Assembly: GCA_938010615.1 (NCBI GenBank)
Contig: CALLUY010000104.1
Coordinates: 1 to 37,648, forward strand
Length of the DNA: 37,648 nucleotides
Direction of reading: 5' to 3'
Source of the DNA: an uncultured Pirellulaceae bacterium
Lineage (GTDB): Bacteria; Planctomycetota; Planctomycetia; Pirellulales; Pirellulaceae
This document shows, one piece after another, positions 3,661 through 33,360 of the stretch. A program made the translations under genes and the position numbers. Below the pieces are notes generated by a model. It saw only the letters and a program-made list of their open reading frames with translations, did not search any database and was not told the origin of the DNA. Each line of letters opens with the position of its first letter. Position 1 is the stretch's first letter.

Positions 3661-3661
3661 G

Positions 3662-5950: not shown

Positions 5951-6100
5951 AATGAACCGAATGCGTCGACGTAGTTTCCCAAGCAGCCGATCGATCGGCG
6001 GCGAGATGGATTTCAGCGTTGGCGAACGAGCGGGCAGGGAAATGCGGTTGGTTGAGTCAGAATGTTGATGTGTGCGACGGGGGACGCGTTGCTTGTCAAA

Positions 6101-6210
6101 GTAGCACGTCTCTCCGAGACGTAAAAAATCGCCTCGGAGAGGCGAGCTACGTAAAATCGCCTCGGAGAGGCGAGCTACGTAAAATCGCCTCGGAGAGACG
6201 AACTACGTCA
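6101..6210. repeat. Tandem and inverted 28-bp repeat cluster
   Basis: Three tandem units start at 6119, 6149 and 6177, of 30, 28 and 28 bp. Each contains the palindromic core CGCCTCGGAGAGGCG, with the last unit diverged to GAGACG. The left edge (6101-6120) holds a partial inverted copy (GTCTCTCCGAGAC). The cluster lies between the 92-residue ORF and the 762-residue gene, inside the frame that extends upstream of the latter. It is not a CRISPR because there are no spacers between units. Confidence 0.75.
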
Positions 6211-6251
6211 TTGCCCCCTTAGTTTTTAGCTGTATCGATGCACTGAGCGTC

Positions 6252-6530: not shown

Positions 6531-6550
6531 TACATCTGTGGGCTTGTCGT

Positions 6551-8644: not shown

Positions 8645-8646
8645 CG

Positions 8647-11544: not shown

Positions 11545-11616
11545 GCTTCGTCGGTCCTGTAAAAAAGAATCGTAAGTCAAGTCTGTGAAAATTGTCGCCT
11601 GAGCGACACCAGTCAA

Positions 11617-18373: not shown

Positions 18374-19924
18374 TTACATTCCAAACGATCGCTGCATCGA
18401 ACGGATGCGGTCATGAAGTTCAAATTTTTGCTGCTCGAATAAATCGTCTGAGCCTTCCGACGCCTTAATTGGCTGCTTCATTCGCGTGGTTGAAACTCTC
18501 AGTTCCGACATGGCCGCATCCCATCGCTCCGATTCAGACAAATTCGAAATCCAAGCAGGTTTCGCGTTGATGAATTCGCTTGGGTTCGTCCTTGGAACCG
18601 AAGGTCGACTACGAACCGTTGTCTTAGAACTTGAGCCGGCATTCAAGATTGCGTAGGACAGCAACGAAAACAAAGCCAGTGCCGCCGCAATTAAAACCAG
18701 TGGGGCAACCAACGACTTGGGCTCTGACGGCTTGCCCAATTCGGGACGCCGATATTGAGTTGGATTTTGCATGTGAGCCAAATACTGTTTGAGAGTTTCT
18801 TGAACAGATCCCGCGGAATCGAACCGTTCGTCTGGATCCTTCTGAAGCAGTTTTGAAATCAGTTCATCGAGTGTTTTCGGAACCTGACTATTGACCGACC
18901 GCGCTGACGCAGGCTGTTGCGATCCAATTTTCTGCAATACGCCATACGGGTTTTCAGCGCGAAATGGTTCACGCCCCGTCGCCATGAAATACATCACGCT
19001 GCCGAGGCTAAACAGGTCGCTCCGCAAGTCAATTTCTTCTCCTTTGCTTTGCTCAGGCGACATGTAGTGCGGCGTGCCTGCGAGCCAACCGGACTGTGTT
19101 AGCCCCGCATCGTCGGCGGCACGAGCCAAACCAAAATCTGTGATCAAAACGCGGCTGACGTCTTTCTCAAGAAGAATATTGGCTGGTTTGATGTCGCGAT
19201 GAACCAGTCCTTGCTCGTGAGCCGCTGACAGGCCAGAAGCGATCTGTTGGGCGATACGAACGACGTCTTCCGCGGACAGCGGGCCCGTTTCCTCGACATG
19301 TTTCTGCAACGAGCGACCGGAAACCAACGCCATCACAATGTAAGGACGTTTTTTCGATGTCCCGATCGAATAGATCGGCACGACATTGGGATGCACAACC
19401 GCCGCCGCTGCTTGGGCTTCGCGAGCAAATCTCTTGCGTGCCACACCGCTGACGGAAAGATGAGGAGCCAAAAACTTGATTGCCACAGGACGATTTAGCT
19501 CCGCGTCGAAACCTTTGTAGACGACGCCCATTCCTCCACGGCCAATCATTTGTTCGATGCTGAATCCGTCAACGCGCCCCAGCATTTCAGGATGAGTCGG
19601 CGACTCAAACGGTACGTCCTCAACGTAGTCGGGAAACTCGCTGACGGAAACGGCTGCAGCGCTGATCGAATTCGGATCGATCTTTACGAACACGCTTGAA
19701 CTGAAATTGGAATTTGTTTCAGCTTTTAATCTCACTGATGCAGCAAGATTCGAAGTGGCTTTTGCCCAGAAAGATTCTTCGCCAGCAAAGTTGGCCAGCT
19801 TTTCACGACACTCCCCGCAATCCGAAAGATGCTCAGCCAGTTGCGTTTCAGCTTTGCCATCAAGGGTTTGTAATATTGCTTCCTCAAGTCGACTCTGATT
19901 GCATTTTGGTTTGGACTTGTTCAT
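18374..19924 (-). CDS. Zinc-finger anti-sigma-like Ser/Thr protein kinase
   Basis: 516 residues. An N-terminal HxxxCxxC zinc-binding motif (His32, Cys36, Cys39), as in ZAS anti-sigma factors, precedes a complete kinase domain. The kinase has glycine loop IGRGGMGVVY (from 127), Lys150, HRDIKPANILL (from 242), DFG (263-265) and GTPHYMSPE. One membrane helix (405-427) and a short outer tail follow. All catalytic residues are present. The ATG overlaps the sigma factor stop by four bases (ATGA), so the two are made together. In planctomycetes such ECF-kinase pairs are common, and the kinase is thought to control the sigma factor. Here the ZAS motif on the same chain suggests binding as well as phosphorylation (inference). 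Confidence 0.9.
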   Translation of the reverse strand: MNKSKPKCNQSRLEEAILQTLDGKAETQLAEHLSDCGECREKLANFAGEESFWAKATSNLAASVRLKAETNSNFSSSVFVKIDPNSISAAAVSVSEFPDYVEDVPFESPTHPEMLGRVDGFSIEQMIGRGGMGVVYKGFDAELNRPVAIKFLAPHLSVSGVARKRFAREAQAAAAVVHPNVVPIYSIGTSKKRPYIVMALVSGRSLQKHVEETGPLSAEDVVRIAQQIASGLSAAHEQGLVHRDIKPANILLEKDVSRVLITDFGLARAADDAGLTQSGWLAGTPHYMSPEQSKGEEIDLRSDLFSLGSVMYFMATGREPFRAENPYGVLQKIGSQQPASARSVNSQVPKTLDELISKLLQKDPDERFDSAGSVQETLKQYLAHMQNPTQYRRPELGKPSEPKSLVAPLVLIAAALALFSLLSYAILNAGSSSKTTVRSRPSVPRTNPSEFINAKPAWISNLSESERWDAAMSELRVSTTRMKQPIKASEGSDDLFEQQKFELHDRIRSMQRSFGM

Positions 19925-20547
19925 GAACCCGCCCCGTTTGCTTGATTGTTCGAATTTGCGGCCAGATCTTTTTCGCTGGCTCTTTCGATCGTTTTCTTGA
20001 GTTTCGCAATGACTCGGGATCTGGCGATGTAAATTGCTCCTGTCGTCAGCTGCAATGATTCAGCGACTTCGACAACAGAACGCTCTTCAACGGCAGTTTG
20101 CCAAAAGGCTTGCCACGTTTTGCTTTGAAAGGATGGCTTGATCTTTTCGGCCGCCCAAGCGAAGAGTTGCTTTTCATATTCAGCATCATAGAAATCGGAT
20201 GCCGCACATTGCTCCGGCACGGATTGCAAAATTGGATCGTTTGCTGAAACTGGCTGACGATCCTTCTGTCGCAGAAAGTCGATCGTCAAATTTCGCGCGA
20301 TCGTTCCAATCCAGCCGCGGAAAGTTCCCTTTTCCAGACTAGGCTCCCAGCGCCGAACTGATTTGGCGATGCGAACAAATACGTCCTGAGCCAAATCGTT
20401 TGCGTCTGCGTTTTGTAAACCTCGTGACTTCGCGATTCGCAAAATCAGCGGTTCATAGATTTCACAAAATTCAAACCAAGCTTCTGCGTCCGCGGTCTCT
20501 TTCAACCGCAAGATCAAGCTGTTTCGAGTTTTGGGAGGATTGCTCAA
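19921..20547 (-). CDS. ECF-type RNA polymerase sigma factor
   Basis: 208 residues from a TTG at 20547; no ATG is available in frame nearby. Region 2 is seen in YEPLILRIAKSRG, NDLAQDVFVRIAKSV and WIGTIARNLTIDFLRQ. Region 4 is seen in SVVEVAESLQLTTGAIYIARSRVIAKLKK. The length and lack of a sigma-3 domain fit the planctomycete ECF groups encoded beside Ser/Thr kinases. It diverges from the GH38-like gene across a 102-bp gap and forms an operon with the kinase and the Gly/Met-rich protein. It probably directs its own operon, but no promoter repeat could be identified. Confidence 0.88.
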   Translation of the reverse strand: MSNPPKTRNSLILRLKETADAEAWFEFCEIYEPLILRIAKSRGLQNADANDLAQDVFVRIAKSVRRWEPSLEKGTFRGWIGTIARNLTIDFLRQKDRQPVSANDPILQSVPEQCAASDFYDAEYEKQLFAWAAEKIKPSFQSKTWQAFWQTAVEERSVVEVAESLQLTTGAIYIARSRVIAKLKKTIERASEKDLAANSNNQANGAGS

Positions 20548-20637
20548 ACGTTCTTTCGTTGCTTATTTCCTGCTCACTACCAATTTACACGTTGGCCAAA
20601 GGGAAGTCTTTCACGAATTCCATGAAGAATTTGATGC

Positions 20638-20643
20638 TAAAAT
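20638..20643 (+). promoter_or_regulatory. Possible extended -10 of a leaderless GH38 transcript
   Basis: TGCTAAAAT reads as TGn plus TAAAAT (-10 at 20638-20643). The start codon of the GH38-like gene is at 20650, six bases further, where transcription would begin. No good -35 is seen at 17 bp. Low confidence. Confidence 0.3.
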
Positions 20644-20649
20644 TGTGGG

Positions 20650-23238
20650 ATGATTAAAATCCTTCAAAAATTCACGTTGCCTTGTTGTTTTGGCCTCCTT
20701 TCGATTTTTCTTTGTTCTCCAGTGAGCTCACAAGAGAAGTCCAAAATCTATCTCGCGCCGGACGATCACACCGACTACTTTTGGACTGCGGACGACGTTC
20801 AATACCGCGCGGCGTTCCTCGAAATGATCGACTACTACCTTGATCTCGCCGACCGCACGAAAGATGCTCCGCCGGAATATCAGTCGCGTTGGAATTGCGA
20901 TGGGAGCCTGTGGATTTGGGAATATGAAAAGAACAAACCTGCCAAAGACTTTGATCGATTAATTGAGCGAATTCGCGACGGCCACATTTCGATGCCGATG
21001 ACGGCGTTGGCCAACACGTATGGAGCCCAACCTGCTGAAGCAGTCATTCGAGGGATGTACTATGCGGGACAGCTGGAGCGGAAACACGATCTCCGTTTTC
21101 CGATGGCGGTCGCCATGGAAAACCAAACTTTGCCGTTGGGGCTTGGTGCTCTTTGGTCTGGGTCGGGAGCAAAGTATTCGTGGCGTGGCGTGTGTGCTTG
21201 CGCGACGAAGATGGAGTACAAAAATTTTCAACAGCGTGACAATGAAATCTATTGGTGGAAAGGCCTCGACGGCAGCCGTGTTCTGATGAAGTGGTATTCT
21301 CTCGGCGACAACAACGCTTCCATCGGCGGATACGCAGAGGCTCGGAAACCACGTCACGCGATCGATTGGGTCAACTCCAATAAGGGGTTCAAAAAGCGAC
21401 ATCCTTTCGGAACCATTGGATTGTTTGGTCAGGGTTGGGACGATTTGAAAACGTTGTCGGACGAGTTTATCAAGGTCGCCAAGGAGAAAACGACTGAGGA
21501 TCAGCAAGTCATCGTTTCGAACGAAGAAGACTTCTTTCGCGACTTCGAAAAACACTATGGACCGCGACTGTCCAGTGAAAGTCTGGCTTACGGCAACGAA
21601 TGGGATCTCTATTGCATGTCGATGGCCGAACAAACAGCTCGTGTTCGTCGCGCGGTTGAGAAACTGAGAACGGCGGAGGCCCTTGCGACAATCGTATCGG
21701 AATTCAATCCATCATTCTGGACCGATCGCCAGACAACACGAGATCAGGCATATATGAATTTGGGTTTGTACTGGGAGCACGACTGGACAGCGGACAGCAC
21801 AGAAGAATTGCGAGGCAAGCGGGGTCGATGGCAACGGAAACTGTCGGATCAGATTTCGAGCTACGTCGATGAACTGCACGACGCAGGTTTGCAGGCCGTC
21901 GCAGATCGAATTCCGCTTAAGGCAAATACACATCGATTTGTCGTGTTCAATTCTCTTGGTTGGACTCGCGATGGAAAAGTGAACATCGACCTTCGCGGAT
22001 TGCCAAAACTTGAAGAAGGCATGGGTTGGAATGCAATTGATGTTGAATCAAGTAAACCAGTCGACATTTTGAGCCGAACTGACAACTCACTTTCGATCAA
22101 AGTCGCTCGCGTTCCTTCGGTTGGATACAGAGTCATCGAGTTGATTCAAAGTGAATTTGAAAACGACGATCCCAAAGCCGGCACTCGTGTCCTTGAGAAC
22201 GAATTCTTGAAGCTGTCCATTTCCAATTCAGGAAGTATCGAATCATTGATTGATAAAAAGTCAGGGAAGAATCTTGCTGGTCCGAATGGTCTAAACCTGT
22301 TGCGGCAAGAAGGTTCGCTGCCAAATTCTGAACCGCATGGTCAGGTTGCTGAAGTCCAAGGCGAACACGAATCGAGTTTGCTCATTAAAGTTCAGCGAGG
22401 AATTCCGCATACCGTCAAGTTGACATTGCCAAAAAATGCGAACTGGGTCGAAATTGAAAATACCATTGACGGAAATTTCTCGGGCACATGGATCTGGGAA
22501 TTCGACTTTGCAATCCCGGATTCCGCAGTGCACCACGAAGAAGTCGGCGCGATCCTCAACGCATCGCTGGCCACAGACGGCGGGCACTACGCATCCAAAA
22601 ATGCTCGCTACGATTGGCTTTCGCTTGGGCATTTCGTCGACGTCCGTGGAACGGCTGGTGGAGTCACGATTGGCAATCGAGACTGTGCATTTTTCCGACG
22701 AGGTCTAAGCACGCCTCGATATTTGGATACGAAATCGTCAAAGATCAGCGTCCTCACTGGCGGACAAGTCGATGGCCCGAAGCTGGGGATCCGACATCAG
22801 GGCGGTGACAAGAAATTTACGCAGCGATTCGCAATCCGTGTTGGACCTGACGCCAAATTCGATCCCGTCAGTTCAATGCGTTGGTCATTGGAAACACAAA
22901 ATCCGCTCGTCGCTCGCAGACTTCCGACGGATTCAAAAGTTGAAAGACAACTTCCCGAAAAAACTTACTCGTTTCTTTCCTCTGCGAACCATGATGATTC
23001 GCCAGCGCTATTGTGGTCGCTAAAGCCTTCGGAGGAAGGCATCGCCAACGGAATCATTCAACGCTTCTGGAATGTTTCAAACTCAAGCTTCGACGCAACC
23101 GTCAAGATCGATGGATTGAAACGTGCCTTTCACACGAGCCATATTGAGACCGATGGCGAAGCATTGGTGATCGAAAATGAGTCAGCCAGTGTCAAATTTG
23201 CGCCGCAGCAAATGCGATCGTTTCGCTTGGAACGATAG
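20650..23238 (+). CDS. Secreted GH38-type (alpha-mannosidase-like) glycoside hydrolase
   Basis: 862 residues with a signal peptide (LPCCFGLLSIFLCSPVSSQ). The N-terminus has the GH38 zinc signature in DDHTDYFW (His40, Asp42, Trp45), and a family-like middle helical domain is visible near residues 320-350. GH38 enzymes are zinc-dependent retaining alpha-mannosidases. In the region where the nucleophile Asp sits (WQIDPFG in canonical members) this protein reads AMENQTLPLG, placing Asn158 at the nucleophile position by hand alignment. It may be a divergent active clade using another residue, or an inactive relative. C-terminal beta-domains (about 470-862) are complete. It is transcribed away from the sigma operon and probably acts on glycans outside the cytoplasm. 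Confidence 0.8.
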   Translation: MIKILQKFTLPCCFGLLSIFLCSPVSSQEKSKIYLAPDDHTDYFWTADDVQYRAAFLEMIDYYLDLADRTKDAPPEYQSRWNCDGSLWIWEYEKNKPAKDFDRLIERIRDGHISMPMTALANTYGAQPAEAVIRGMYYAGQLERKHDLRFPMAVAMENQTLPLGLGALWSGSGAKYSWRGVCACATKMEYKNFQQRDNEIYWWKGLDGSRVLMKWYSLGDNNASIGGYAEARKPRHAIDWVNSNKGFKKRHPFGTIGLFGQGWDDLKTLSDEFIKVAKEKTTEDQQVIVSNEEDFFRDFEKHYGPRLSSESLAYGNEWDLYCMSMAEQTARVRRAVEKLRTAEALATIVSEFNPSFWTDRQTTRDQAYMNLGLYWEHDWTADSTEELRGKRGRWQRKLSDQISSYVDELHDAGLQAVADRIPLKANTHRFVVFNSLGWTRDGKVNIDLRGLPKLEEGMGWNAIDVESSKPVDILSRTDNSLSIKVARVPSVGYRVIELIQSEFENDDPKAGTRVLENEFLKLSISNSGSIESLIDKKSGKNLAGPNGLNLLRQEGSLPNSEPHGQVAEVQGEHESSLLIKVQRGIPHTVKLTLPKNANWVEIENTIDGNFSGTWIWEFDFAIPDSAVHHEEVGAILNASLATDGGHYASKNARYDWLSLGHFVDVRGTAGGVTIGNRDCAFFRRGLSTPRYLDTKSSKISVLTGGQVDGPKLGIRHQGGDKKFTQRFAIRVGPDAKFDPVSSMRWSLETQNPLVARRLPTDSKVERQLPEKTYSFLSSANHDDSPALLWSLKPSEEGIANGIIQRFWNVSNSSFDATVKIDGLKRAFHTSHIETDGEALVIENESASVKFAPQQMRSFRLER

Positions 23239-23369
23239 GCGTTAACCTGATCACATTGCCACCGTGTCGCTGAGGATACGCGATGCTAGCGAATTGTTCG
23301 AAGGACAGTTTCGCGACCATGGCAACTTAAGTTGTTCTCGCGGACGACTATCTGAATCGTGACAGCTTA

Positions 23370-23385
23370 AAAAGTTGCAACTTTT
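23370..23385. repeat. Perfect 16-bp palindrome between GH38 and RTX-like genes
   Basis: AAAAGTTGCAACTTTT is self-complementary, 127 nt before the start at 23497. It could be an operator or part of the GH38 transcript end; there is no T-tract beyond the arm. Otherwise the 258-bp gap 23239-23496 shows no further structure. Confidence 0.45.
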
Positions 23386-23496
23386 GTCAATTGCAGTCGA
23401 TAGAGTCGAAGGCGTTTCGGGCTCAAAATCCGTTCAAAACATTGTGTTTTGAATTCGCACAGCCTTGCCCCTTTCCAGACAACGAAAGATTGCATC

Positions 23497-25614
23497 ATGA
23501 AGAACTTTTTCCAACGATTGAGCATCACCAAATTCGTTTCCAATCAGCCAAAGCGACGTCGCCGCTGCAACAACTCGAATTCATTTCTAAAGCTCGAAGA
23601 TCGTAACCTCCTCGCAGCCGTCACGCTCAGCAATGTCGGATTCGGTGATCAACTTCAGTTCACAGCCGACGCTGGAGAGGCAGACGATGTTTCAGTGGAA
23701 ACAACCTCCACAGGTTCGATCCAGTTTCGAGTTGCAAACGGAGATTCGATTACCGTTCCTTCATTTTCAAATCCTGCGATTCGATTGAGTAGCTTCGCAA
23801 CCAACAACGATACGTTAACGATCGATCCGACAGGAAATTTCGGTTCCGGATTTGGACGACTCGACGTGATCAGCGTCGACTTGGGCGACCAAGATGACAA
23901 CCTCTCGATCTCAATGAACTCCAACGATTTGGTTTTCAACGAAACGTTGGCAACGTTCTTCAACGTTGGCTCCGGCAACGATGTGGTTGATGCTTCGGCT
24001 TCCACAAGGCCCGTACGAATTCTCGGTGGTGCCGGCAATGATCAAATCACTGGCGGATCTGGAAACGATACGATCCTTGGCGACGCAAACGATCAAGATG
24101 CTGGTCAGGATACGCTCAATGGTGGCGCCGGCAACGACTACATCAGCGGAAGCAGCGGAGTCGACATCCTTAACGGCGGCGCTGGAAATGATACTCTGCT
24201 TGGCGGCGAAGGTTTCGACACAATCGATGGCGGGTCGGGCGTCGACACGAACTCGTTCCTCGACATCGGAACCAGCGTGACCGCGACGGTCACCGGTGAC
24301 GGTAGCGGAACGGTCGAACACGGGACGGTTCAAGAAACGTTTGCCAACATCGAAGGACTTACGGCGTCCAACAATGGCGACGTGTTGACGATCTTTGGTG
24401 ATGTCGGTGGTACGCTGACCGGTGGAGCCGGTGACGATATTCTGACCGGCGGCAATGGCGACAATCGCTTGATCGGAAACGATGGCGACGACATTTTGCG
24501 AGGCGGCCCTGGAAACGATATCGCCTTCGGTGGATTGGGGAACGATCGGCTCAACGGAGGAGCCGACGACGATCAACTTTTCGGCGGTGCCGGTGATGAC
24601 TTCTTCGTTGGCATCTCCGGTACGGATTCAATTTCTGGCGGTGCGGGAAATGATATTAATTCATTCCAAGGGATCGGAATGGGTGTCACTGCCGTGATTC
24701 GTGACGACGGAACCGGAACCGCAAACTACGGATCAGTCACCGAAACGTTTACTGGCATCGAGCAACTGGTCGGTTCAGAATTTGATGATGTTCTGACGGT
24801 CGAAGGTTCGCAAGGGAGAACATTGGTTGGACTCGATGGCGACGATCTTCTAACCGGCGGTCTGGGCGCTGACACATTGATTGGAGGTCAGGGCAGCGAC
24901 ACTCTACGCGGCGCCGAAGGTGACGATATGATCTTCGGCAGTGAGGGCAATGACTTCCTCAACGGCGGAGACGGTGATGACACGATGTTCGGCGAGGCGG
25001 GAGATGATTTCTTCGTCGGGATCGGAGGGACAGATTCGATCCACGGCGGAGACGGAATCGACACGAACTCTTTTGAGGACATTGGTACTGGCGTGACAGC
25101 AACCATCGAAGCCGACAACGCGGGAACAGCAACGTATGGATCGGTAGTAGAAACGTTTACTGGAATTGAAAACCTGATCGGATCCGAGTTTGATGATGTG
25201 CTTTCGGTGTTCACGAACAGGAACACCATCATTCGTGGCCGTGGCGGCGACGACATCATGACAAGTTTGGCTGGCAACGATCTTTTGATCGGCGGAACGG
25301 GGAATGATATTCTTCGCAGCGGATCCGGTAACGATCGATCCTTCGGTAACGAGGGAAGCGATCGACTTAATGGCGGTGCAGGGGACGACGTGCTCTTCGG
25401 AGGCGAAGGCGATGATTTCTTTGTCGGGATCGAGGGCACGGATCAGATCAATGGTGGCTTGGGAATTGACTTGAACTCATTCGAGGGCATCGATCTTCCA
25501 GTTAGCGTCGTACGTAACCCTGACGGTTCGGGCACGGCCACATACGGGGCGGTCGTTGAGTCATTCACGAGCATCGAGCGGTTCTTCAATGCAACGGTGA
25601 CCGAGCAAGCGTAG
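23497..25614 (+). CDS. Secreted RTX-like repeat protein with LEPR-XLL-type N-terminus
   Basis: The ATG at 23497 (MKNFFQRLSITKF) gives 705 residues; an upstream TTG frame adds only non-coding-like sequence. Near residue 45 the planctomycete export signal LEDRNLLAAV is preceded by Arg-rich sequence. The rest is built from RTX-type calcium-binding nonapeptides (GGAGNDxIxGG). The C-terminal part, about 540 residues, is four modules of 136 residues. Equivalent NSF codons fall at 24250, 24658, 25066 and 25474, exactly 408 bp apart. Each module ends with a GxGTAxYGSVxETFTGIE-type linker. It is probably a calcium-folded cell-surface or released adhesin; no enzymatic domain is seen. Confidence 0.85.
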   Translation: MKNFFQRLSITKFVSNQPKRRRRCNNSNSFLKLEDRNLLAAVTLSNVGFGDQLQFTADAGEADDVSVETTSTGSIQFRVANGDSITVPSFSNPAIRLSSFATNNDTLTIDPTGNFGSGFGRLDVISVDLGDQDDNLSISMNSNDLVFNETLATFFNVGSGNDVVDASASTRPVRILGGAGNDQITGGSGNDTILGDANDQDAGQDTLNGGAGNDYISGSSGVDILNGGAGNDTLLGGEGFDTIDGGSGVDTNSFLDIGTSVTATVTGDGSGTVEHGTVQETFANIEGLTASNNGDVLTIFGDVGGTLTGGAGDDILTGGNGDNRLIGNDGDDILRGGPGNDIAFGGLGNDRLNGGADDDQLFGGAGDDFFVGISGTDSISGGAGNDINSFQGIGMGVTAVIRDDGTGTANYGSVTETFTGIEQLVGSEFDDVLTVEGSQGRTLVGLDGDDLLTGGLGADTLIGGQGSDTLRGAEGDDMIFGSEGNDFLNGGDGDDTMFGEAGDDFFVGIGGTDSIHGGDGIDTNSFEDIGTGVTATIEADNAGTATYGSVVETFTGIENLIGSEFDDVLSVFTNRNTIIRGRGGDDIMTSLAGNDLLIGGTGNDILRSGSGNDRSFGNEGSDRLNGGAGDDVLFGGEGDDFFVGIEGTDQINGGLGIDLNSFEGIDLPVSVVRNPDGSGTATYGAVVESFTSIERFFNATVTEQA

Positions 25615-25650
25615 GCGGATAACGCGTCATCGACGGGCAGGGCAAAAGTT

Positions 25651-25955
25651 TTGAAGTTGCAGTGTTTAGTGCTGAAAGCACGGCATGTTGCAGCCATTCG
25701 AACTGAGGTGGCATATGCCTCTGGCATGTGATCGTTTTTTAGTGCTGAAAGCAAGGCATGTATTAGCCATGGACGCAAGTCCATGGAAGCGTTGCTGTAT
25801 TAATCGGTAGTCCTGAACGGACGGCAGGAAAATTGAGGTAGTGTAGAGCTTGGCTCCTGCCGTGCCTTCGGCACTCCCCTCTGCGGCGGTTCATTAACCG
25901 TAACCACGGACTTGCGCCCATGGCTACAACGTGTCGTCACTTCGTGACTGAAAGA
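25651..25955. mobile_element. Diverged copy of the MITE-like element, interrupted by a 43-bp insert
   Basis: This repeats the 1756-1996 element: the same left end (TTTGAAGTTGCAGTG), GCTGAAAGCA, CCATGGACGCAAGTCCATGG, CTGCCGTGCCTTCGGCACT and GTCACTTCGTGAC. After about 48 bp it is interrupted by a GAGGTGGCATATGCCTC palindrome stretch (about 25697-25739), after which the TAGTGCTGAAAGCA start is repeated. The right terminal repeat is lost and a different repeat begins. This points to nested insertion or recombination between repeats. Confidence 0.65.
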
Positions 25956-25977
25956 GGCTGTGAATTTTACATCCTTT

Positions 25978-26053
25978 GTTTGTAGTACCGCCTTTAGGCG
26001 GAATCGAGCTTGAGCGAAGTGGAGGAATTCCGGTTAAAACCGGTACTACAAAC
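25978..26053. mobile_element. 76-bp MITE-like palindrome with 13-bp terminal repeats
   Basis: GTTTGTAGTACCG (25978-25990) is exactly inverted at 26041-26053. Two inner hairpins, CCGCC-TTTA-GGCGG (25988-26001) and CCGGTT-AA-AACCGG (26030-26043), flank a 28-bp centre. It is non-coding and immediately next to the preceding repeat. Elements of this form are dispersed in Pirellulaceae genomes (family knowledge). Confidence 0.65.
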
Positions 26054-26235
26054 GGCGCGAATGCCTTAGTGAAGCACACGCCAAATAAATTCACAGCCTC
26101 AAAGCGTGCAGCCTCAAAGCGCGTAAGCGAGGTGCGTCTCGGTACCTTGCTCACGCGTCGGCTTATGATTGGCAAAATGAAACGTTGTAACTCCCGAATG
26201 ACGGGACCTTACGGCAGTCCATGCAATTTCCTAGA

Positions 26236-26291
26236 AAGCAAGTGAATCACAAACGCCTCCAATATTCACTCGCTTGCGTTTCGGGTTTGTG
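26236..26291. repeat. Short inverted repeat, relative of the gcgagcgag family
   Basis: CACAAAC (26248-26254) pairs with GTTTGTG (26285-26291), and GCAAGTGAAT on the left matches the inverse of ATTCACTCGCTTGC. The inner sequence is related to the inverted repeats at 37089-37222. It fills part of the gap before the PAS gene; 26054-26235 holds no other gene or clear signal. Confidence 0.5.
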
Positions 26292-26348
26292 TAGTGCTCC
26301 CCTTACCACACAGTGTCTAGACCATGACTTCCACCGGTTACGCTACTC

Positions 26349-26786
26349 ATGAATACCATCGCTGACGCCAAGTCACTCCTCGATCAAAACGATCATCTTT
26401 CCATTTGGTACGCCGCGTACAAAGGGACAGAGGAAACCGTTCTTTATGCCAATCCGCTGTTTTGCAAAACCTTCGGCCACTCTTTGGAAGAGATCCTCGC
26501 ACGCAAACGCTACGAACTCGTAAATCCGCCTGACACACCAGCGGCCACGATCGAGCAATTCAAAGCCGAAGATCGTGAAGCCATGGAACGCGGCTTCTTT
26601 CTTCAACGTAGCGTTGTCGAACCGGGCAAAGACATTCTGGTCCTCAAAATTCGCTTCGATCAAGGGATCATCGGAATGTTCAAGTTAATTGATTCCAACG
26701 ATCCCAGCCAAACCAACTCGCCGCACGATCTGGATGGAGACTTCCGCAGCGTGACAGAATCGCTGCGGGCAGACCTGCTTGGCTGA
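26349..26786 (+). CDS. Single PAS-domain protein
   Basis: 145 residues that are essentially one PAS fold: IWYAAYKGTEETVLYANPLFCKTFGHSLEEI is the PAS beta-strand and helix pattern, ending with a beta hairpin (RSVVEPGKDILVLKIRFD). No kinase, GGDEF or DNA-binding domain is attached, so it must act on a partner protein. ATG at 26349. It stands alone between the repeat cluster and the left end of the tRNA-Arg islet, and a T-tracted hairpin 190 bp downstream could end its transcript. Confidence 0.75.
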   Translation: MNTIADAKSLLDQNDHLSIWYAAYKGTEETVLYANPLFCKTFGHSLEEILARKRYELVNPPDTPAATIEQFKAEDREAMERGFFLQRSVVEPGKDILVLKIRFDQGIIGMFKLIDSNDPSQTNSPHDLDGDFRSVTESLRADLLG

Positions 26787-26830
26787 AGCCGTAAAAAAAA
26801 TGGTTGCGGGATCAGAACGGTTGGTAACGG

Positions 26831-26854
26831 AAGCACTCCCGAGAGGATTCGAAC
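26831..26854. other. attL-like 24-bp copy of the tRNA-Arg 3' end
   Basis: These 24 bases match 31113-31136 at 23 of 24 positions (one T for C) and share its orientation. The matched segment is the T-arm and 3' acceptor of tRNA-Arg(CCU) plus three flanking bases. The remainder of the tRNA is absent here. Such 3'-end duplications are the usual mark of tyrosine-integrase insertion at a tRNA gene. Confidence 0.75.
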
Positions 26855-26978
26855 GAATCGGCTTTTTCGTTGGCCGGATGGACTCAGTGCTCCAGATTCA
26901 ACGCGTTCCAATTTCTGACGCTCTTGTGTCCACTGTTTGAACATGTGTTCATTCGAATCAAATCCATTAGAATCTCTA

Positions 26979-27037
26979 ATCCGGCTTAAGGTCTGCAGCC
27001 CGAACCGCGGTCTCCAACCGCCTGCCGGATTTTTTTT
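26979..27037 (+). terminator. Possible terminator between attL and rhuM
   Basis: ATCCGGC (26979-26985) pairs with GCCGGAT (27024-27030), followed by seven Ts. A small inner hairpin CGG-tctccaa-CCG sits in the 38-base interior. It is oriented to end plus-strand transcripts just before rhuM (27069). The large loop makes it uncertain. Confidence 0.4.
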
Positions 27038-27068
27038 GGAAGCATCTTGAAAGTGCAAAAGCCAAGAA

Positions 27069-28124
27069 ATGACTGACGAACCCAAACCTCAAGACGACAG
27101 CCCTGGCGGCTTTCTCATCTACGACGCCCCGGATGGCAACACTCGCATCGAAGTCCGAATGCAAGACGAGACCGTCTGGTTAACTCAGAAGCAAATGGCA
27201 GAGCTTTTTCAGACGAGCATCCCCAACATCAACCAGCACTTGGCCACCATTTTCGCCGATGGAGAATTGACCTTCGAGGCAACTATTAAGAAATACTTAA
27301 TAGTTCAAACTGAAGGAAAACGCGAGGTTTCCCGGCACATCGACCACTACAACCTGCAAGCCATCATTGCGGTCGGCTATCGAGTCCGCTCCCCCAGAGG
27401 CACCCAGTTTCGCATTTGGGCCACCGAGCGTCTGCGTGAATATCTGGTCAAAGGATTCACGATGGACGACGACCGTCTCAAGCGAGGCGGTGGAGGTCAC
27501 TACTTTGATGAACTGCTGGCCCGCATTCGCGACATCCGCAGCAGTGAGCGCGTCTTTTGGCGAAAGGTGCTGGACATTTATGCAACCAGCATCGACTACG
27601 ATCCGTCTGCAGAATCGTCCACGCAGTTTTTCAAGACGATCCAAAACAAGATGCACTGGGCCGCACACGGCCACACTACAGCCGAAGTAATCGCGCAGCG
27701 AGCGGACGCATCCCAACCTGACATGGGTTTAACCAACTACGACGGCAAGCGTCCTCGCAAGTCAGACGTTTCGATCGCCAAGAATTACCTGAACCTTGAA
27801 GAGATCGAAACGCTAAATCGAATTGTGAACGCCTATTTGGAATTTGCCGAACTACAAGCTCAGAACCGTCGTCCCATGCACATGGCCGACTGGATCAGCA
27901 AGCTCGATGACTTCTTGCGTTTGTCCGATCGTGATATTCTGAACCACGCGGGCAAGGTTTCCCACAAAGATGCGAAAGCCAAAGCGGAGCAGGAGCTTGA
28001 TGCGTACCGTCAACAGCAAGCCGCTTTGCCTGAGCCGGTCGATCGCCATTTCGATCAAACATTGGATGAATTGAAGAGAATTGAAGACGAAGCCAAGCGA
28101 AGGAAGGAGGACAACGATGCATAG
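27069..28124 (+). CDS. rhuM: RhuM family protein
   Basis: 351 residues of the RhuM (virulence protein) family, complete. The N-terminal DETVWLTQKQMAELFQTS (residues 33-50) is the family's helix-turn-helix-like start. HYNLQAIIAVGYRVRSPRG, QFRIWATERLREYLVKGF and 'DYDPSAESSTQFFKTIQNK' follow, with the C-terminal charged helix. RhuM genes are very often located inside type I restriction-modification operons between hsdM, hsdS and hsdR; their job is not established. Here it is the only intact gene of such a locus, with hsdM and hsdR pieces on the right. No frameshift seen. Confidence 0.88.
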   Translation: MTDEPKPQDDSPGGFLIYDAPDGNTRIEVRMQDETVWLTQKQMAELFQTSIPNINQHLATIFADGELTFEATIKKYLIVQTEGKREVSRHIDHYNLQAIIAVGYRVRSPRGTQFRIWATERLREYLVKGFTMDDDRLKRGGGGHYFDELLARIRDIRSSERVFWRKVLDIYATSIDYDPSAESSTQFFKTIQNKMHWAAHGHTTAEVIAQRADASQPDMGLTNYDGKRPRKSDVSIAKNYLNLEEIETLNRIVNAYLEFAELQAQNRRPMHMADWISKLDDFLRLSDRDILNHAGKVSHKDAKAKAEQELDAYRQQQAALPEPVDRHFDQTLDELKRIEDEAKRRKEDNDA

Positions 28125-28136
28125 TGCAATATTTGG

Positions 28137-28208
28137 AAACGCAAAGGCGCTGAGGACGCAGAGTTGTTTTCCGCACATCCCCTCCGCGATCTCTGCGTCT
28201 CCGCGTTT
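28137..28208. repeat. Dispersed palindromic repeat inserted next to hsdM remnant
   Basis: The left arm (AAACGCAAAGGCGCTGAGG then ACGCAGAG) and the right arm (CTCTGCGTCTCCGCGTTT) are imperfect inverted copies around a 27-base centre. The same kind of repeat is widespread in unrelated bacterial genomes. It starts 13 bases after rhuM and sits where the body of hsdM should be, so the deletion probably ended at or involved this element. Confidence 0.6.
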
Positions 28209-28212
28209 CAAA

Positions 28213-28434
28213 TCCTACCGCGCCGAGTTCGCCGAACATGGCTATGTGCTCACGCCGGCTAGCTACGTGGGAGCCGAAGTGGTGGAGGACGACCGCGTCC
28301 CCTTCGCCGAAAAGACAGAGCGCTTGACCCGCGAGTTAGCCACTCAATTTCACGAGTCCGAAAAACTGCAGGCGGCGGTCCGCGACACATCCTTCTTTTC
28401 TCAGCGAAGTCTTTTGATGGTGGCCAATTTATGA
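28213..28434 (+). pseudogene. hsdM: C-terminal remnant of type I restriction methylase HsdM
   Basis: Translation gives YRAEFAEHGYVLTPASY, VGAEVVEDD and VPFAEKTERLTRELA, which match the C-terminal tail of type I methylase subunits (HGYVLTPGRYVG, EDDGVPFEEKM, LTAQL pattern). The catalytic domain, including the NPPF motif, is absent. The open frame continues upstream only through the palindromic repeat. About 75 residues remain out of roughly 500. Confidence 0.75.
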
Positions 28435-30728
28435 AACGGCGACCGCTCAAACTGAAGACTGTTCAAGGCAAGGTTGATTTTGCCGTAATCACCATTCGTC
28501 CGGACGAGTATGAGGCTGTTCTTGACAGGCTTCCGGGGCGGCAAACGGTTGTGGGAGGTTAAAACTACGAATACGCCAAGTTTCGGAACAGTTACGGAGA
28601 GCTTGTTCGCGTTGCCGTCGCACGGACACCGGGACAAGGTAACAACGCAGCGCAACAAACCGCCAACGATATGTTCAACGACCTTCGCCCAAAGTGGATT
28701 GCGCTTGTTGGAATCGCCGGAGGGTTTCCGAGCGACGACTTTTCACTTGGAGACGTAGTACTAGCTTCGCGTGTACTCGATCTATGCGTTACCGCTTCAA
28801 AGAAGGGTGAAACCGAGTACGCCGTGCATGGAGGATTTTGCCATCCCGACGTCGAGGCACTTCTAAGCTGGCTTCCAAGTCAAAAGGAGACGCTTTGCAA
28901 GCTGTTTCCGCATTTGAATGCAAAAATGAGAGAGGAGCTCATCACGCGGATTCGTGAATGGACAAAATATCGCGCCGGTGTGGAGTTGATCGACGACCAA
29001 TTCATTTGGGATCGAGAATCACGTTTGCATTTGCTCAATGCAATTCCCTCGAAGTACGTATCAAAGTCGCTGGCTGCGTTCATTAAAGACGAAAAGGAGA
29101 GTCTCCCTGATTGGGACAAAGAAATTCATCGTGCTCATAGTGGATGGGTCAAAACGATTCCTCCAATCACTGAAGAGGAGATGGCTACCGCGACCGACAA
29201 TGAATTGGTCGAAGCATTCACAAAACAAAAACCCGGCAACAGCTCTTGGAATCAGGTTGAGGGCGGTTTTGAGGAACAAGGCGGTGGTGAAGCGTCTGCA
29301 CAACAGCTCGCCAAAATGGCGGAATCCGACCATAAAGATGCTGCAAGGATTTTGCGGTTGCTTGTTCAGCGGGGCGTGACGAAGAACATCGACCGAGCGT
29401 TGGAAGGTTTCGGCAAATGCGCGGACCGCGATTTCGTATTTGGACTATTGGCTGACATTAGCCCCAAATGTGAAGCGAGCGAATCGTTTCGCGCAAGTGC
29501 GTCTCGCATTCTCTTGGATTTGTGTGATGACGATGGGTTACCAGAAAGACAGATTCAGTTGCTCATCAGCTGGTTGAATATGCCGTGGGATCACACACGA
29601 TCCGTGGTTGTCGATGGCAAAGAGAAAGACTGGGACCCTAAGAAAAGTCTACTCTGGAGTAATTTGGGCTCAATGATTATCGACACGGACCAATCGTATT
29701 GGACGTTGGTTACGGTTACTCACGGTCTGCTAACCAGGAACGCACCTGAGGGCGATCGTTGGATGGCGTTACTTTCGACGCACCTTGATCAAGAAGTCTC
29801 CTTTAAGACGTGGCGGATGTTCTGCGACCGTCTGCGTTACGTATGTGGCAATGGATGCACCCCAGACTCCGCCAAAGCGCTGATTAGTAAGCTCTACGAT
29901 AAATTCCCAACACTTGCTTCAGAAACGATTGGTTGCCGGTTACTCGCCCGGCTTATTCGGTTCCTAGATCCCAAATTTCTACGGAATGCTTTCCAACGTT
30001 TGAAAGCGTCGAACCGTTCTATCGACCAGCAAGCTTTTGGGGAACTCCTGACGCTTGCAGCACTTTTGGATGAAACATTTGACTGGGCGCGCCCAATGCT
30101 TTCTCGAGAACTGTCGCTAGACACTGAACCGAACGAGGCGTTTTTGGTTGGGGCATCGCACGCGGTGTCGAACTCGTGGTATGACCTAGAGAAGCCGTCA
30201 GAATGCTCCCAGATTCTGAGGCAAATTTTTGCGACCGGTAACCCACAAGCCATCAACGCGTCGAGAACGCTCTTTTGGAAAGATGTTAGATTACCACTCG
30301 ATGAGAATACACTTGCGCTCTTTGCTGCGATTGAAGAAAACGTTGACGCCATAGACTCAGGACTAGCGGAAGAGGTTCTTGGTGAGATGGTCGATATCCT
30401 TCCAGAGACGGATAGACTCCCACAATTGCGCCCTCAGGTTCTTTCCTTCTGTAAACGATTGGTTGAAACGCGAATCGACGAGTTGAAACGCCGCGACTTC
30501 AATGCGTACGAAGTCGGACCGTTCTTGGTTGAAGCTGCTATGACTCTACAGCGATTTCCGGACACACGCACCGGAGGTCTTGATTTGTTTGAGCAACTCC
30601 TTCGCGCCGGACTAGATGATGCTGACAGAGCCTTAAAGGACTTTGATGGAACCAGCGGATCTTCTGGCAGCCGAAGGGAACCGCGAAGACGTAGGCGGCA
30701 ACGCCGCCGGCGCGCAACAAGCTCTTAA
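28431..30728 (+). pseudogene. Nucleosidase-type (PNP superfamily) defence protein, interrupted by TAA and probably internally deleted
   Basis: An ATG at 28431 opens a frame (MKRRPLKLKTVQGKVDFAVI, TIRPDEYEAVLDRL) that meets TAA at 28560-28562. The same frame continues as NYEYAKFRNSYGELVRVAVA, ..GNNAAQQTANDM and IALVGIAGGFPSDDFSLGDVVL through to 30728. These two parts together form the N-terminal half of a phosphorylase/nucleosidase (GIAGGFP and LGDVV motifs). The expected catalytic MESAG-like part is missing. The sequence moves instead to a WVKTIPPITEEEM region and about 500 residues of helical repeats. In larger defence proteins a nucleosidase effector, an NTPase and a helical sensor are joined; here the middle appears lost (inference). 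The last 30 residues are a frame-shifted Arg-rich run. A start at 28671 would give a 685-residue product lacking the N-terminus. Confidence 0.7.
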
Positions 30729-30872
30729 ACGATGACGCCGTCCGCGAACGCCGAGCCACCTACGGGGACGAAGTGCAACCCGGCTCGCGCAAGGGGGGTG
30801 TGTGTTCTGGCACACGCAGGGCAGCGGCAAGAGCATTGCCATGTGCTGCTGCAGCAACCGGCGACAGGCTAA
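30728..30872 (+). pseudogene. hsdR: Fragment of type I restriction subunit HsdR (Walker A region)
   Basis: Three frames must be joined: NDDAVRERRATYGDEVQPG and SRKGG from 30728, then FWHTQGSGKSIAMCC around 30806-30850, then LLQQPATG ending at TAA 30870. The HsdR helicase P-loop WHTQGSGKS is unmistakable. A G-run at 30792-30797 lies near the first frameshift. Both the N-terminal nuclease and the rest of the helicase are missing. The 240 bases from 30873 to the tRNA hold no recognisable gene. Confidence 0.75.
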
Positions 30873-31112
30873 GGCGCTGGCCTTGGATTTGAAGGAACAA
30901 GGATGAAAGAAGTCTCGGTCTGTGACGTGGATGGGCAATTCACCGACTGTGCCTCAAAAGCACTATCTGCAGATTACACCGGCGACATTGCGAAGGCAGT
31001 AAACGTTGGCAACGAAAAGTTTGAAAATAGTTTTCAGGACAGTGGCTCTGTGGGCAGCACTGTGCCACCAGTACCCGCGTTTTCCAGAATTGAAGGGCAT
31101 GGAACAACTGAA

Positions 31113-31136
31113 AAGCACCCCCGAGAGGATTCGAAC
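31113..31136. other. attR-like segment within tRNA-Arg 3' end
   Basis: The right copy of the 24-bp direct repeat. It covers the acceptor 3' strand and the T-arm/T-loop of the tRNA plus three downstream bases. Together with the copy at 26831 it encloses about 4.3 kb on the 3' side of the tRNA, which is the side where integrated elements are found. Confidence 0.7.
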
Positions 31137-31188
31137 CTCCGACACCAGCTTTAGGAAAGCTGTGCTCTATCCCCTGAGCTACGGGGGC
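31116..31188 (-). tRNA. tRNA-Arg (anticodon CCU)
   Basis: On the minus strand a 73-base cloverleaf folds. The acceptor is GCCCCCG/CGGGGGT with a G-U at 1-72. The D-stem is GCTC/GAGC, the anticodon stem CAGCT/AGCTG with loop TTCCTAA (anticodon CCT), and the T-arm GGAGG-TTCGAAT-CCTCT. The discriminator is G and CCA is not encoded. Its 3' end faces the defence islet, and its last 21 bases are repeated at 26831-26854. Confidence 0.93.
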
Positions 31189-31478
31189 GTGCAATGTTTT
31201 TTCGATGTTGGACAACCCGCGGGCAACCTTTTCATCAAAAACGACCTGAAACGGGCGCCGAGTGCTACAACACCTGACGGCCAAAACGCCTCTAACGTGA
31301 CAACGTAATGACGGTCGCGAATTCTACACGCCGGAAGCCTTCGAAGCCATATCCAGAGCCCCCTCTCTTCTGCCAAACAACGGCCAACCACATAAGAAAC
31401 TAAGGAGTAAGCTCTTCTCTTTCGGCAGTTGAGACGAACCAATATTCCACTTGAGAAGCACAGTGCCGAGCACCCTTA

Positions 31479-31544
31479 TCTGAAAATACCGGCATTCTGA
31501 ATGCGGGCATTCTGAAAATGCGGGCATTCTGAAAATGCGGGCAT
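31479..31544. repeat. Four tandem 17-bp repeats
   Basis: The unit TCTGAAAATGCGGGCAT is seen at 31511-31527 and 31528-31544 exactly, with two diverged units at 31479-31495 (TACCGG for TGCGGG) and 31496-31510 (two bases shorter). They lie in the 650-bp gap between the tRNA and rhaB. Besides the operator-like sites further on, 31189-31478 and 31545-31686 show no gene. Confidence 0.8.
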
Positions 31545-31686
31545 CGCGCACCGGAAACGCATAACGGTCGGCGACGGGTCGGCGACCTTAGCAATGAGCA
31601 CTTGACGTTCAAGAGGGTCGGCTCAAACAGGAGGTAATTGAGAAATGCACGTTTTTCGACTACGCCAACAAGCTAGTCGACCAAAG

Positions 31687-31713
31687 TTTAACTGTCGCAA
31701 AACGGCAATTAAA
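31687..31713. promoter_or_regulatory. Operator-like palindrome 1 upstream of rhaB
   Basis: TTTAACTGTCGC and GGCAATTAAA are imperfect inverted halves around CAAAAC. The 12-base core AACTGTCGCAAA is identical to a site before the AraC gene (33404-33415). It lies 61 bp (centre to centre) from palindrome 2, close to six helical turns. Confidence 0.6.
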
Positions 31714-31746
31714 GGGAGCGTTGATGGAAGTTTGTTGTTGATATCA

Positions 31747-31775
31747 TTTAATTGTCGCGTTCAGACAGTTCTAAA
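31747..31775. promoter_or_regulatory. Operator-like palindrome 2 upstream of rhaB
   Basis: TTTAATTGTCGC at the left and GACAGTTCTAAA at the right are inverted halves. It shares TTTAA[CT]TGTCGC with palindrome 1. It is 68 bp before the rhaB start. A TTTAAT in the left arm could overlap a -10, so binding here might block or steer the polymerase. Confidence 0.55.
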
Positions 31776-31842
31776 CCGACGATTCTGCTAGTCGAAGCTG
31801 ACACAACGCATCTCTATCTTGCCGCATCGGTGCGGAGCCAAT

Positions 31843-33360
31843 TTGAAAAATAGCCGACACTTTATTGGAATTGACTTGGGCGGTGAGAGTGGCCGGGTCG
31901 TGCAAGGAAGCTTCGACGGTCGGAAGATTCAGTTGCGGGAAAAGCACCGCTTCGCGACCGGTGGTATCGAAATCGATTCCACGCTTCGTTGGGACGTTGG
32001 TCACTTCTGGAACGAAATACAGACAGGATTGTCGATCGCGGCAAAGGAATGCGACGCTATCGTCAGCGTCGGAGTTGATTCGTGGGGCGTTGATTACGCT
32101 CTGCTGAATTCAAACGATGAACTGATTGAACTTCCCTATCATTATCGTGATAGCCGGAACGTTGGAACGCTGAGCAAGATACTCAAAGAGTTTCCCAAAG
32201 CGGGTGTGTTTGGGCAAACTGGCATCCAGTTCATGGAGATCAACACCCTTTGCCAATTGTTTGCCCGAAAGGAAAGCGATGACTCGCTGGACAAGGCGAA
32301 GCATTTGCTTACGATCGCAGACTATTTTCATTGGTGTCTGTGCGGATCGAAGTCTGTCGAATTCACGTTCGCGACCACGACTCAGTGTTTCAATCCTCAG
32401 AAACGCAAGTGGGCGACTACAATGCTCGACACGCTGGGCATCCCCACACATATGCTTCCTGAAGTGGTCGAACCCGGAACCAATCTCGGCATGATCAGAA
32501 ACACTGTGTCGGAAGCAACGGGGATAGGACTCGGCGCAGTCTCCGTTGTGGCCCCTGCGACCCATGATACGGCCTCAGCAGTTGTTTCGGTCCCTGTAAG
32601 CAAAGAAGTTGGCCGCAACTGGGCTTACATCAGTTCGGGAACATGGTCGCTTGTTGGAATGGAAGTTGATCAGCCTGTTATCTCGGCTGAAGCCTTGTCT
32701 GCCAACGTGACAAACGAGGGTGGTGTCGATGGAACTTGGCGACTGCTGAAAAACGTGATGGGCCTTTGGCTGATTCAACGTTTGCGGCAGGCGTTGTCTG
32801 ATCGTGGGTTTCAACGAACCTATGAAGAACTGACGAAGTTGGCTGGAGCCGCATCGCCGACGCGTTGCTATATTGATCCAGACGACGCTACGTTCCTGAA
32901 CCCGACGAATATGGAACAAGCGATTCTGAATTTCTGCAACGAAACGGGGCAAAATGCTCCAACGGATGAAGCCGGTCTCGTTCGATGTGTTTTGGAGAGT
33001 CTGGCATTGCGATATTGCCAAGTGCTTCGTGAAGTTGAAGAACTTGCCGAAACGAAAATCGATGTCGTCCATGTCGTTGGCGGTGGATGCAAGAACATTC
33101 TGCTGAACCAATTCATTTCCGGTGCTACACGATTGCCGGTAGTTGCAGGACCTAGCGAAGCAACTGCACTGGGCAATGTCATGGTGCAATGCCGTGCTGC
33201 GGGCGACGTCGAAACTCTCGATGACATTCGCGAAGTAGTCCGCAACTCGGTTGACCTGATCGAATTTGAGCCGACTTCGCTAACCTATTGGCAAGACGCA
33301 ATGACTCGTTTTGAGCAAGTCTGCGAAAAGCGTTCGTTGGGAAGACTTGGTAAGCAGTGA
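31843..33360 (+). CDS. rhaB: Rhamnulokinase
   Basis: The TTG at 31843 is chosen because GGAG lies 5 bases upstream and the protein then begins KNSRHFIGIDLGGESGR, the FGGY kinase N-terminal ATP motif. The frame extends to an earlier TTG at 31819. 505 residues; the family diagnostic SVGVDSWGVDYALL, the GQTGIQFMEINTLCQL substrate region, APATHDTASAV, ISSGTWSLVG and HVVGGGCKN are all present. These match RhaB, which phosphorylates L-rhamnulose to L-rhamnulose 1-phosphate in the cytoplasm. No rhaA or rhaD is in this window. It is followed by an AraC regulator and a rhamnosidase, forming a rhamnose-use locus. Confidence 0.92.
   Translation: MKNSRHFIGIDLGGESGRVVQGSFDGRKIQLREKHRFATGGIEIDSTLRWDVGHFWNEIQTGLSIAAKECDAIVSVGVDSWGVDYALLNSNDELIELPYHYRDSRNVGTLSKILKEFPKAGVFGQTGIQFMEINTLCQLFARKESDDSLDKAKHLLTIADYFHWCLCGSKSVEFTFATTTQCFNPQKRKWATTMLDTLGIPTHMLPEVVEPGTNLGMIRNTVSEATGIGLGAVSVVAPATHDTASAVVSVPVSKEVGRNWAYISSGTWSLVGMEVDQPVISAEALSANVTNEGGVDGTWRLLKNVMGLWLIQRLRQALSDRGFQRTYEELTKLAGAASPTRCYIDPDDATFLNPTNMEQAILNFCNETGQNAPTDEAGLVRCVLESLALRYCQVLREVEELAETKIDVVHVVGGGCKNILLNQFISGATRLPVVAGPSEATALGNVMVQCRAAGDVETLDDIREVVRNSVDLIEFEPTSLTYWQDAMTRFEQVCEKRSLGRLGKQ

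What the first reader, a model, noticed from the sequence alone, without database searches (positions are those of the whole stretch)
26831..31136. tRNA-Arg(CCU)-bounded 4.3-kb defence islet with attL/attR-like direct repeats and no integrase
A 24-bp copy of the tRNA 3' end (23/24 identical, same orientation) lies 4.28 kb away on the 3' side of the intact tRNA. That is the exact geometry of integration at a tRNA gene. Everything between is defence-type: rhuM, hsdM remnant, nucleosidase-type gene and hsdR fragment. The islet has shrunk and lost its integrase, so it looks like a fossil or a satellite cargo site at a hotspot.
Basis: partly seen in the sequence, partly recalled or inferred. Interest (0 to 1): 0.7.

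Follow-up and report, generated by a model that had tools for sequence, protein, structure and literature searches.

The report
Decayed defence islet beside tRNA-Arg
A short stretch of broken anti-phage genes sits between a tRNA gene and a copied piece of that tRNA, as left behind by an old DNA insertion, and the same kind of gene wreck in related bacteria holds other anti-phage systems in the same slot.

Summary
A 24-bp copy (23/24) of the tRNA-Arg(CCU) 3' end lies 4.28 kb away on the tRNA's 3' side, same orientation; shuffles give none and the own assembly holds no other copy. No integrase lies between, and the assembly shows two integrase-family genes, probably XerC/XerD. In 4 of 33 relatives this tRNA has 3'-end copies on its 3' side. 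No empty site was found. It is most likely a fossil tRNA insert.

The cargo tells more: the wreck of one type I restriction operon, with leader, rhuM, the last ~57 codons of hsdM, a nucleosidase-STAND gene with a stop and a ~860-codon in-frame loss, and an hsdR scrap. Nine copies of the hsdM scrap, from five genera, are 85-97% identical. In 8 loci of 7 genomes (19 loci examined) it is followed by different cargo and hsdR remnants, among them Lamassu, Hachiman and type II R-M; 4 of these 8 left junctions fall within 10 bp. Only the window's copy is at tRNA-Arg(CCU), so cargo and tRNA insertion are separable. How cargos were swapped is inferred. New variant of a known kind.

The parts
31115..31188 (-). 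intact tRNA-Arg (anticodon CCT)
   Evidence: ARAGORN
31113..31136 (-). repeat copy inside the tRNA: T loop to 2 nt past the 3' end (reconstituted att-like site)
26831..26854 (-). displaced 24-bp copy of the tRNA 3' end, 23/24; 24/24 identical to the tRNA of relative G025
26980..27059 (+). 5' leader of an hsdM operon; in G010 C209 and G014 C34 the same leader stands before hsdM; hsdM itself is gone here
27069..28124 (+). rhuM, intact 351-aa ORF
   Evidence: PF13310 1e-116, PADLOC PDC-S05 4e-148
28217..28387 (+). hsdM 3'-end rump (57 codons), 85-97% identical among nine copies of five genera; left edge of the cargo slot
28431..30728 (+). nucleosidase-STAND gene, broken: stop codon at 28560-28562, in-frame loss of about 860 codons at 28896-28898; natural C-terminus kept
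30729..30864 (+). hsdR scrap with Walker A motif, frame broken; right edge of the cargo slot
26349..26786 (+). PAS-domain gene just outside the left repeat (not part of the islet)
31819..33360 (+). FGGY-family kinase, probably rhaB, outside the right end

Best explanation
26831-31136 is the remnant of a DNA insert that entered the 3' part of the tRNA-Arg(CCU) gene by site-specific recombination in the T-loop/3'-end region. The insert's copy of the 3' end kept the tRNA whole and the displaced host 3' end was left at 26831-26854; the integrase has since been lost. What remains is the wreck of one type I R-M operon: leader, rhuM, hsdM 3' end, then, where hsdS would stand, a nucleosidase-STAND defence gene, then hsdR. 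Shown: repeat geometry, uniqueness, gene identities, breaks, and the same hsdM-rump/cargo/hsdR frame with other cargos in other genomes. Inferred: the recombination event, the lost integrase, that cargo and att sites arrived together, and that the rump frame exchanges cargo through its conserved ends.
For: Repeat unique to this tRNA, correct side and orientation, 0 of 100 shuffles. Same-geometry copies at the same tRNA in 4 of 33 relatives: G068 51/51 bp at +956, G044 45/45 at +7593, G067 20/20 at +816, G070 57 bp with mismatches at +9210; no 3'-end copy on the 5' side or reversed (431 kb of 3' and 320 kb of 5' flank). 3' halves at contig ends in G014 and G004. Breaks inside the cargo. Whole relatives of the parts: hsdM-rhuM-hsdS-..-hsdR in G034 (domains confirmed) and hsdR-nucleosidase/STAND-hsdM in G078. 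Slot with other cargo in 8 of 19 loci examined.
Against: No empty site, and no relative examined joins the two flanks. The 8 nt after the intact tRNA (TTTTCAGT) are the same in G025 and G018, whereas the displaced copy is followed by other sequence (6 of these 8 nt lie outside the repeat); if they are the native flank, a simple insertion is wrong, or the match is chance. 125 bp (26855-26979) and about 250 bp (30865-31112) between the repeats and the recognised cargo are unexplained. Related cargo in G014 and G020 is not at this tRNA. MAG assembly: the left part of the window is collinear with G025 3.04-3.06 Mb but rhaB lies at 3.51 Mb there, so a rearrangement or misjoin near the tRNA is possible.
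Confidence: 0.66

Rival explanations
1. The repeat is the scar of an older, lost tRNA element, and the R-M wreck came in later by ordinary recombination, as defence genes pile up at such loci. Repeat and cargo are then two separate events.
For: Related wrecks lie away from tRNA-Arg(CCU) in G014, G020 and the 16 other loci fetched (ARAGORN on the fetched stretches); gaps of 125 and about 250 bp lie between repeats and cargo; two partial copies beside one tRNA in G070 suggest successive elements.
Against: The wreck fills nearly the whole interval between the repeats, leaving only about 0.4 kb.
Confidence: 0.27
2. The islet is still mobilisable in trans by an integrase elsewhere (satellite or cargo island without its own integrase).
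For: Both att-like copies are nearly identical; relatives have integrases beside the same tRNA.
Against: G000 shows only two PF00589 genes, probably XerC/XerD; most of the cargo is broken. The assembly is only 84% complete, so an integrase could be missing from it.
Confidence: 0.05
3. The 24-bp copy arose without an integrase, for example by a local duplication or template switching at the tRNA followed by divergence.
For: No integrase, no empty site; the outer flank of the copy does not resemble the tRNA flanks of relatives.
Against: Position, orientation and end point follow the rule of tRNA islands; the copy ends just past the tRNA 3' end and starts at the T loop, one of the known crossover regions (Islander paper, passages).
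Confidence: 0.06

Closest known systems
tRNA-targeted genomic islands (Islander; PMC4383910, passages read)
   Same: Intact tRNA, displaced 3' fragment on its 3' side, same orientation, 4.3 kb between (Islander's length limits are 2-200 kb).
   Different: No integrase, so Islander's own filter would reject it; cargo broken; no empty site known.
KplE1/CPS-53 defective prophage in argW of E. coli (PMC2951348, passages read; that argW reads CCU is recalled)
   Same: Shrunken element at a tRNA-Arg gene bordered by a short duplicated core (16 nt there, 24 here).
   Different: KplE1 is 10.2 kb and keeps its integrase gene intS; here no integrase is left.
Type I R-M operons with embedded defence genes (TgvAB in V. 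cholerae VPI-2 and RloF in C. jejuni; PMC11411939, passages read)
   Same: Unrelated defence genes stand among hsd genes.
   Different: The VPI-2 R-M system is whole and active; here hsdM and hsdR are rumps and other cargo stands where hsdS would be, between short, highly conserved ends.
STAND NTPases with a nucleosidase effector domain (PADLOC Effector 'PN-superfamily' and PDC-M60C, weak matches)
   Same: N-terminal phosphorylase-like domain, AAA/STAND-like core and long C-terminal part in relatives G078 and G041.
   Different: The window copy lacks the second half of the nucleosidase domain and the NTPase core.

Membership tests
tRNA-integrated genomic island | intact target tRNA gene | tested here: met
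tRNA-integrated genomic island | displaced end fragment of the same tRNA, right side and orientation | tested here: met
tRNA-integrated genomic island | integrase gene inside | tested here: not met
   hence filed only as a probable remnant
tRNA-integrated genomic island | empty site in a relative | tested here: inconclusive
   flanks not conserved around the tRNA in the relatives examined
type I R-M system | hsdM, hsdS and hsdR open reading frames | tested here: not met
   hsdM last 57 codons, no hsdS seen, hsdR scrap
nucleosidase-STAND defence protein | effector domain plus intact NTPase core | tested here: not met
   stop at 28560-28562 and ~860 codons missing relative to G078/G041
phage satellite (PICI-like) | own integrase and packaging or helper-interference genes | tested here: inconclusive
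   none among the interval ORFs scanned; short ORFs and the PHROGs library were not scanned

The most novel reading that the evidence does not exclude
In Pirellulaceae, the ends of a type I R-M operon (the last ~160 bp of one hsdM lineage and the first part of hsdR) act as a travelling frame whose middle is exchanged: hsdS in whole operons, but Lamassu, Hachiman, type II R-M, methyltransferases or a nucleosidase-STAND protein in decayed ones. The rump DNA is kept because it is the recombination handle, not because it encodes a working enzyme. The window is one such frame parked in a tRNA-Arg insert.
Probability: 0.4. Interest if true: 0.66.

Novelty: new variant of a known kind. Interest (0 to 1): 0.42.

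Why it matters
As a tRNA islet it is one more decayed insert. The cargo frame matters more: if conserved hsdM/hsdR ends serve as handles for swapping whole defence systems, that is a concrete route by which defence islands change content, and it is testable from junction sequences alone.

Tried and rejected
Empty-site test: searched rhaB (60 genomes, own included), the tRNA (99), the PAS gene (40) and the G025 tRNA-adjacent 531-aa gene (28; found only in G025). The flanks are not conserved around the tRNA, so no empty site could be read; only the left part of the window is collinear with G025.

The partial tRNA copy beside an integrase in G010 C70 first looked like a further case. Its anticodon loop (TTCTAAT) is not that of the CCT gene and reads like tRNA-Arg(TCT), so I dropped it. 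G001 C118 proved to be a tRNA-Glu. Group I intron in the anticodon loop: considered for the half tRNAs of G017, G018, G004 and G014; Rfam at gathering thresholds found only two tRNAs in the five loci given.

Serine recombinase as the window's lost enzyme: a family beside tRNA-Arg genes exists in relatives, but G000 has no match.

AttP-bearing viruses: 0 exact 24-mer matches in viral contigs; plasmids no match for the hsdM rump; phages 3 weak matches, all in the rhuM part.

'tRNA-Arg(CCU) is hotter than other tRNAs': not shown. The control is small (13 other tRNAs), some genomes enter the CCT set more than once, and that stricter test misses G070. 'Exactly shared junction bases': I first read the left junction as identical in window, G020 and G248; closer reading gives a spread of under 10 bp for these and G010 C209, and the same caution holds for the right junction of G020 and G248. 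The other four replaced loci do not join the cluster: G014 keeps the natural hsdM end, and the rump match stops earlier in G010 C165 (a few bp), G033 and G063.

Claims on print rest on the listings; none of the titles and abstracts listed showed an hsdM/hsdR slot with exchanging defence cargo, but no bioRxiv set is held and most subscription papers are missing.

Full report
WHAT IS THERE. The tRNA-Arg(CCT) gene is at 31188-31115 on the minus strand. A 24-bp stretch from its T loop to two bases past its 3' end recurs at 26831-26854 with one mismatch, in the same orientation and on the 3' side. Shuffled windows gave no match with up to three mismatches (0 of 100), and no other copy was found in the 4.70-Mb assembly. 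The copy is 24/24 identical to the tRNA 3' end of G025, whose acceptor pair 3-70 is T-A instead of C-G (read; numbering mine). That may mean that the displaced copy keeps an older host allele, or it may be one chance mutation.

NEIGHBOURHOOD. The window is the whole contig C104 of a 221-contig assembly. Window genes 1117-12369 and 18374-20547 are collinear with G025 3.04-3.06 Mb, and the tRNA of G025 follows 6.5 kb later on the same strand, against 10.6 kb here (the stretch between these two gene blocks was not fetched in G025). Between the sigma-factor gene and the tRNA the window proteins had no match in G025's interval. On the other side, rhaB, araC and the rhamnosidase gene lie 447 kb from the tRNA in G025. 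So the tRNA region is rearranged among species and no empty site can be read.

THE SAME TRNA IN RELATIVES. I examined 33 relatives with at least 2.98 kb of 3' flank (recount: 431 kb of 3' flank, 320 kb of 5' flank, 23 of 33 with 2.9 kb or more on the 5' side). Four have a copy of their own tRNA 3' end in that 3' flank, same orientation: G068 (51/51 bp, +956), G044 (45/45, +7593), G067 (20/20, +816), G070 (57 bp with mismatches at +9210 and a second piece at +144). No 3'-end copy was seen on the 5' side or reversed; G068 has a 5'-half copy 1.4 kb upstream. G068 and G067 are thus also small intervals, about 1 kb and 0.8 kb. G029 and G065 were left out because only 1.0 and 0.1 kb of 3' flank exist on their contigs. 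Contig ends in G014 and G004 carry 3' halves starting in the anticodon loop. G017 and G018 show the reverse type: a lone 5' half, in G018 beside an intact tRNA elsewhere with a similar promoter region and an integrase gene (PF00589 1e-11) about 100 bp upstream of it. Integrase-family ORFs were found near the tRNA in G002, G042 and G041 (3' side) and G018, G019, G009, G044 (5' side, some partial); a further one in G065 looks like XerC/XerD and G017 has a fragment. A stricter test counted 4 of 50 tRNA-Arg(CCT) contexts (window included, some genomes twice) against 1 of 13 other tRNAs, so this tRNA is used repeatedly but is not shown to be special.

THE CARGO. From left to right: 26980-27059 matches the leader that precedes hsdM in G014 and G010 (81% and 86%); hsdM itself is gone. 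rhuM is intact and 88% identical to G014's over residues 1-240; in G014 the gene is split into two frames. Then come the last codons of hsdM, overlapping by ATGA the start of a nucleosidase gene. In G078 and G041 that gene encodes 1662 and 1620 aa with a phosphorylase domain and an AAA/STAND-like core. The window's version has a stop after 43 codons and jumps in frame from the equivalent of G078 residue 200 to 1059. Its C-terminus is natural (it ends like G078's). A frame-broken hsdR piece with Walker A follows. In G078 the intact nucleosidase-STAND gene stands between hsdR and hsdM; in G034 rhuM stands between hsdM and hsdS. So the islet is best read as one decayed operon. The nucleosidase ORF was found in 6 of 99 genomes, own included, and in none of the other 27 genus members.

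THE SLOT. The hsdM 3' end (window 28217-28430) matches 24 of 241 family genomes, own included. I examined 19 loci: 16 fetched plus window, G014 and G020; the weak hits of 8 genomes were not fetched. In 7 loci an hsdS match follows hsdM or its rump (G203, G196, G192 C2, G259, G123, G174, G151). In 8 loci of 7 genomes no hsdS match was seen and other cargo lies before an hsdR remnant: the window; G014 (136-aa ORF); G020 (N6-methyltransferase like type IIG 9e-35, plus 239 aa without match); G248 (LmuA 1e-47, LmuB 4e-112); G063 (HamA 2e-116, HamB 1e-234); G010 C209 (type II methylase 8e-66 and restriction enzyme 3e-151); G010 C165 (cytosine methylase PF00145 2e-43); G033 (a 1988-aa ORF with weak LmuA match 7e-11). 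Four loci are unclear (G192 C8, G061, G193, G010 C163). Nine rump copies from five genera are 85-97% identical to each other, while the last alignment block of intact hsdM genes in G192, G259, G196 and G034 is 48-77% identical. Left junctions: those of window, G020, G248 and G010 C209 fall within 10 bp, some 40 bp before the hsdM stop of whole copies; the other four of the eight do not join this cluster. Right junctions: G020 and G248 coincide within about 10 bp in hsdR; G063 and G010 C165 are 17 bp apart at another place; the window's lies about 290 bp further in than G020's; G010 C209, G014 and G033 differ again. Upstream of the rump stands rhuM (window, G014, G020, G192, G259) or an IS200-like transposase (G010 C209, G196, G248; PF01797).

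READING. The tRNA geometry says that an insert came in here. The related wrecks elsewhere say that the cargo has its own history: of the 19 loci, only the window's has a tRNA-Arg(CCT) in the fetched stretch. Conserved ends with changing middles fit exchange by homologous recombination in the hsdM and hsdR ends. They also fit repeated decay of one widely transferred operon family in which each defence gene was acquired separately. I favour exchange only mildly. Embedding of defence genes in type I R-M loci is known (PMC11411939, passages); decayed frames with differing whole systems between near-identical ends I did not find in the searches made.

WHAT WEAKENS IT. No empty site; possible misassembly; the 8 nt after the intact tRNA equal those of G025 and G018, which would suit a native flank there; small numbers; half of the replaced loci do not share the left junction; family names rest on profile matches.

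Noticed in passing
L068, L079, L211, L213, L214, L215, L212: Close relatives (58-97% identity) of one large serine recombinase end at or inside the 3' end of tRNA-Arg genes in 6 of 7 loci examined: anticodon CCT in G012 and G009, TCT in G012 (second copy), G002, G003 and G078 (only C-terminal parts matched in G009, G002, G003, G078); in the seventh, G057, a tRNA-half-like sequence follows. More distant relatives were not looked at. The Islander paper (2014, passages) says that only tyrosine recombinases were known to target tRNA genes.
   Followed up: partly
L098 and L072 (G018), L097 (G017): 5'-half copies of tRNA-Arg(CCT) ending at the anticodon loop; in G018 with a similar promoter region on both copies and an integrase beside the intact tRNA: elements of the rarer 5'-fragment type at the same tRNA.
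   Followed up: partly
window 20547-31819: Left part of the contig is collinear with G025 3.04-3.06 Mb, right part with 3.51 Mb: rearrangement or misjoin around the tRNA.
   Followed up: partly
L208 (G123) 6119-9311: Intact hsdM, a 428-aa ORF, then a second copy of an hsdM 3' end before hsdS, in another hsdM lineage: insertion at the hsdM 3' end seems to recur.
   Followed up: no
L080 (G010 C70) 5150-5185: 3'-half copy resembling tRNA-Arg(TCT) next to a 330-aa tyrosine integrase gene.
   Followed up: no
window 31479-31550: Four tandem copies spaced 15-17 bp (GCGGGCATTCTGAAAAT) between the tRNA and rhaB.
   Followed up: no
window 28137-28216: Imperfect palindrome between rhuM and the hsdM rump, of the kind CTGAGGACGCAGAG...CTCTGCGTCTCCGCG; recognised from recall as a common intergenic repeat type, read.
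   Followed up: no
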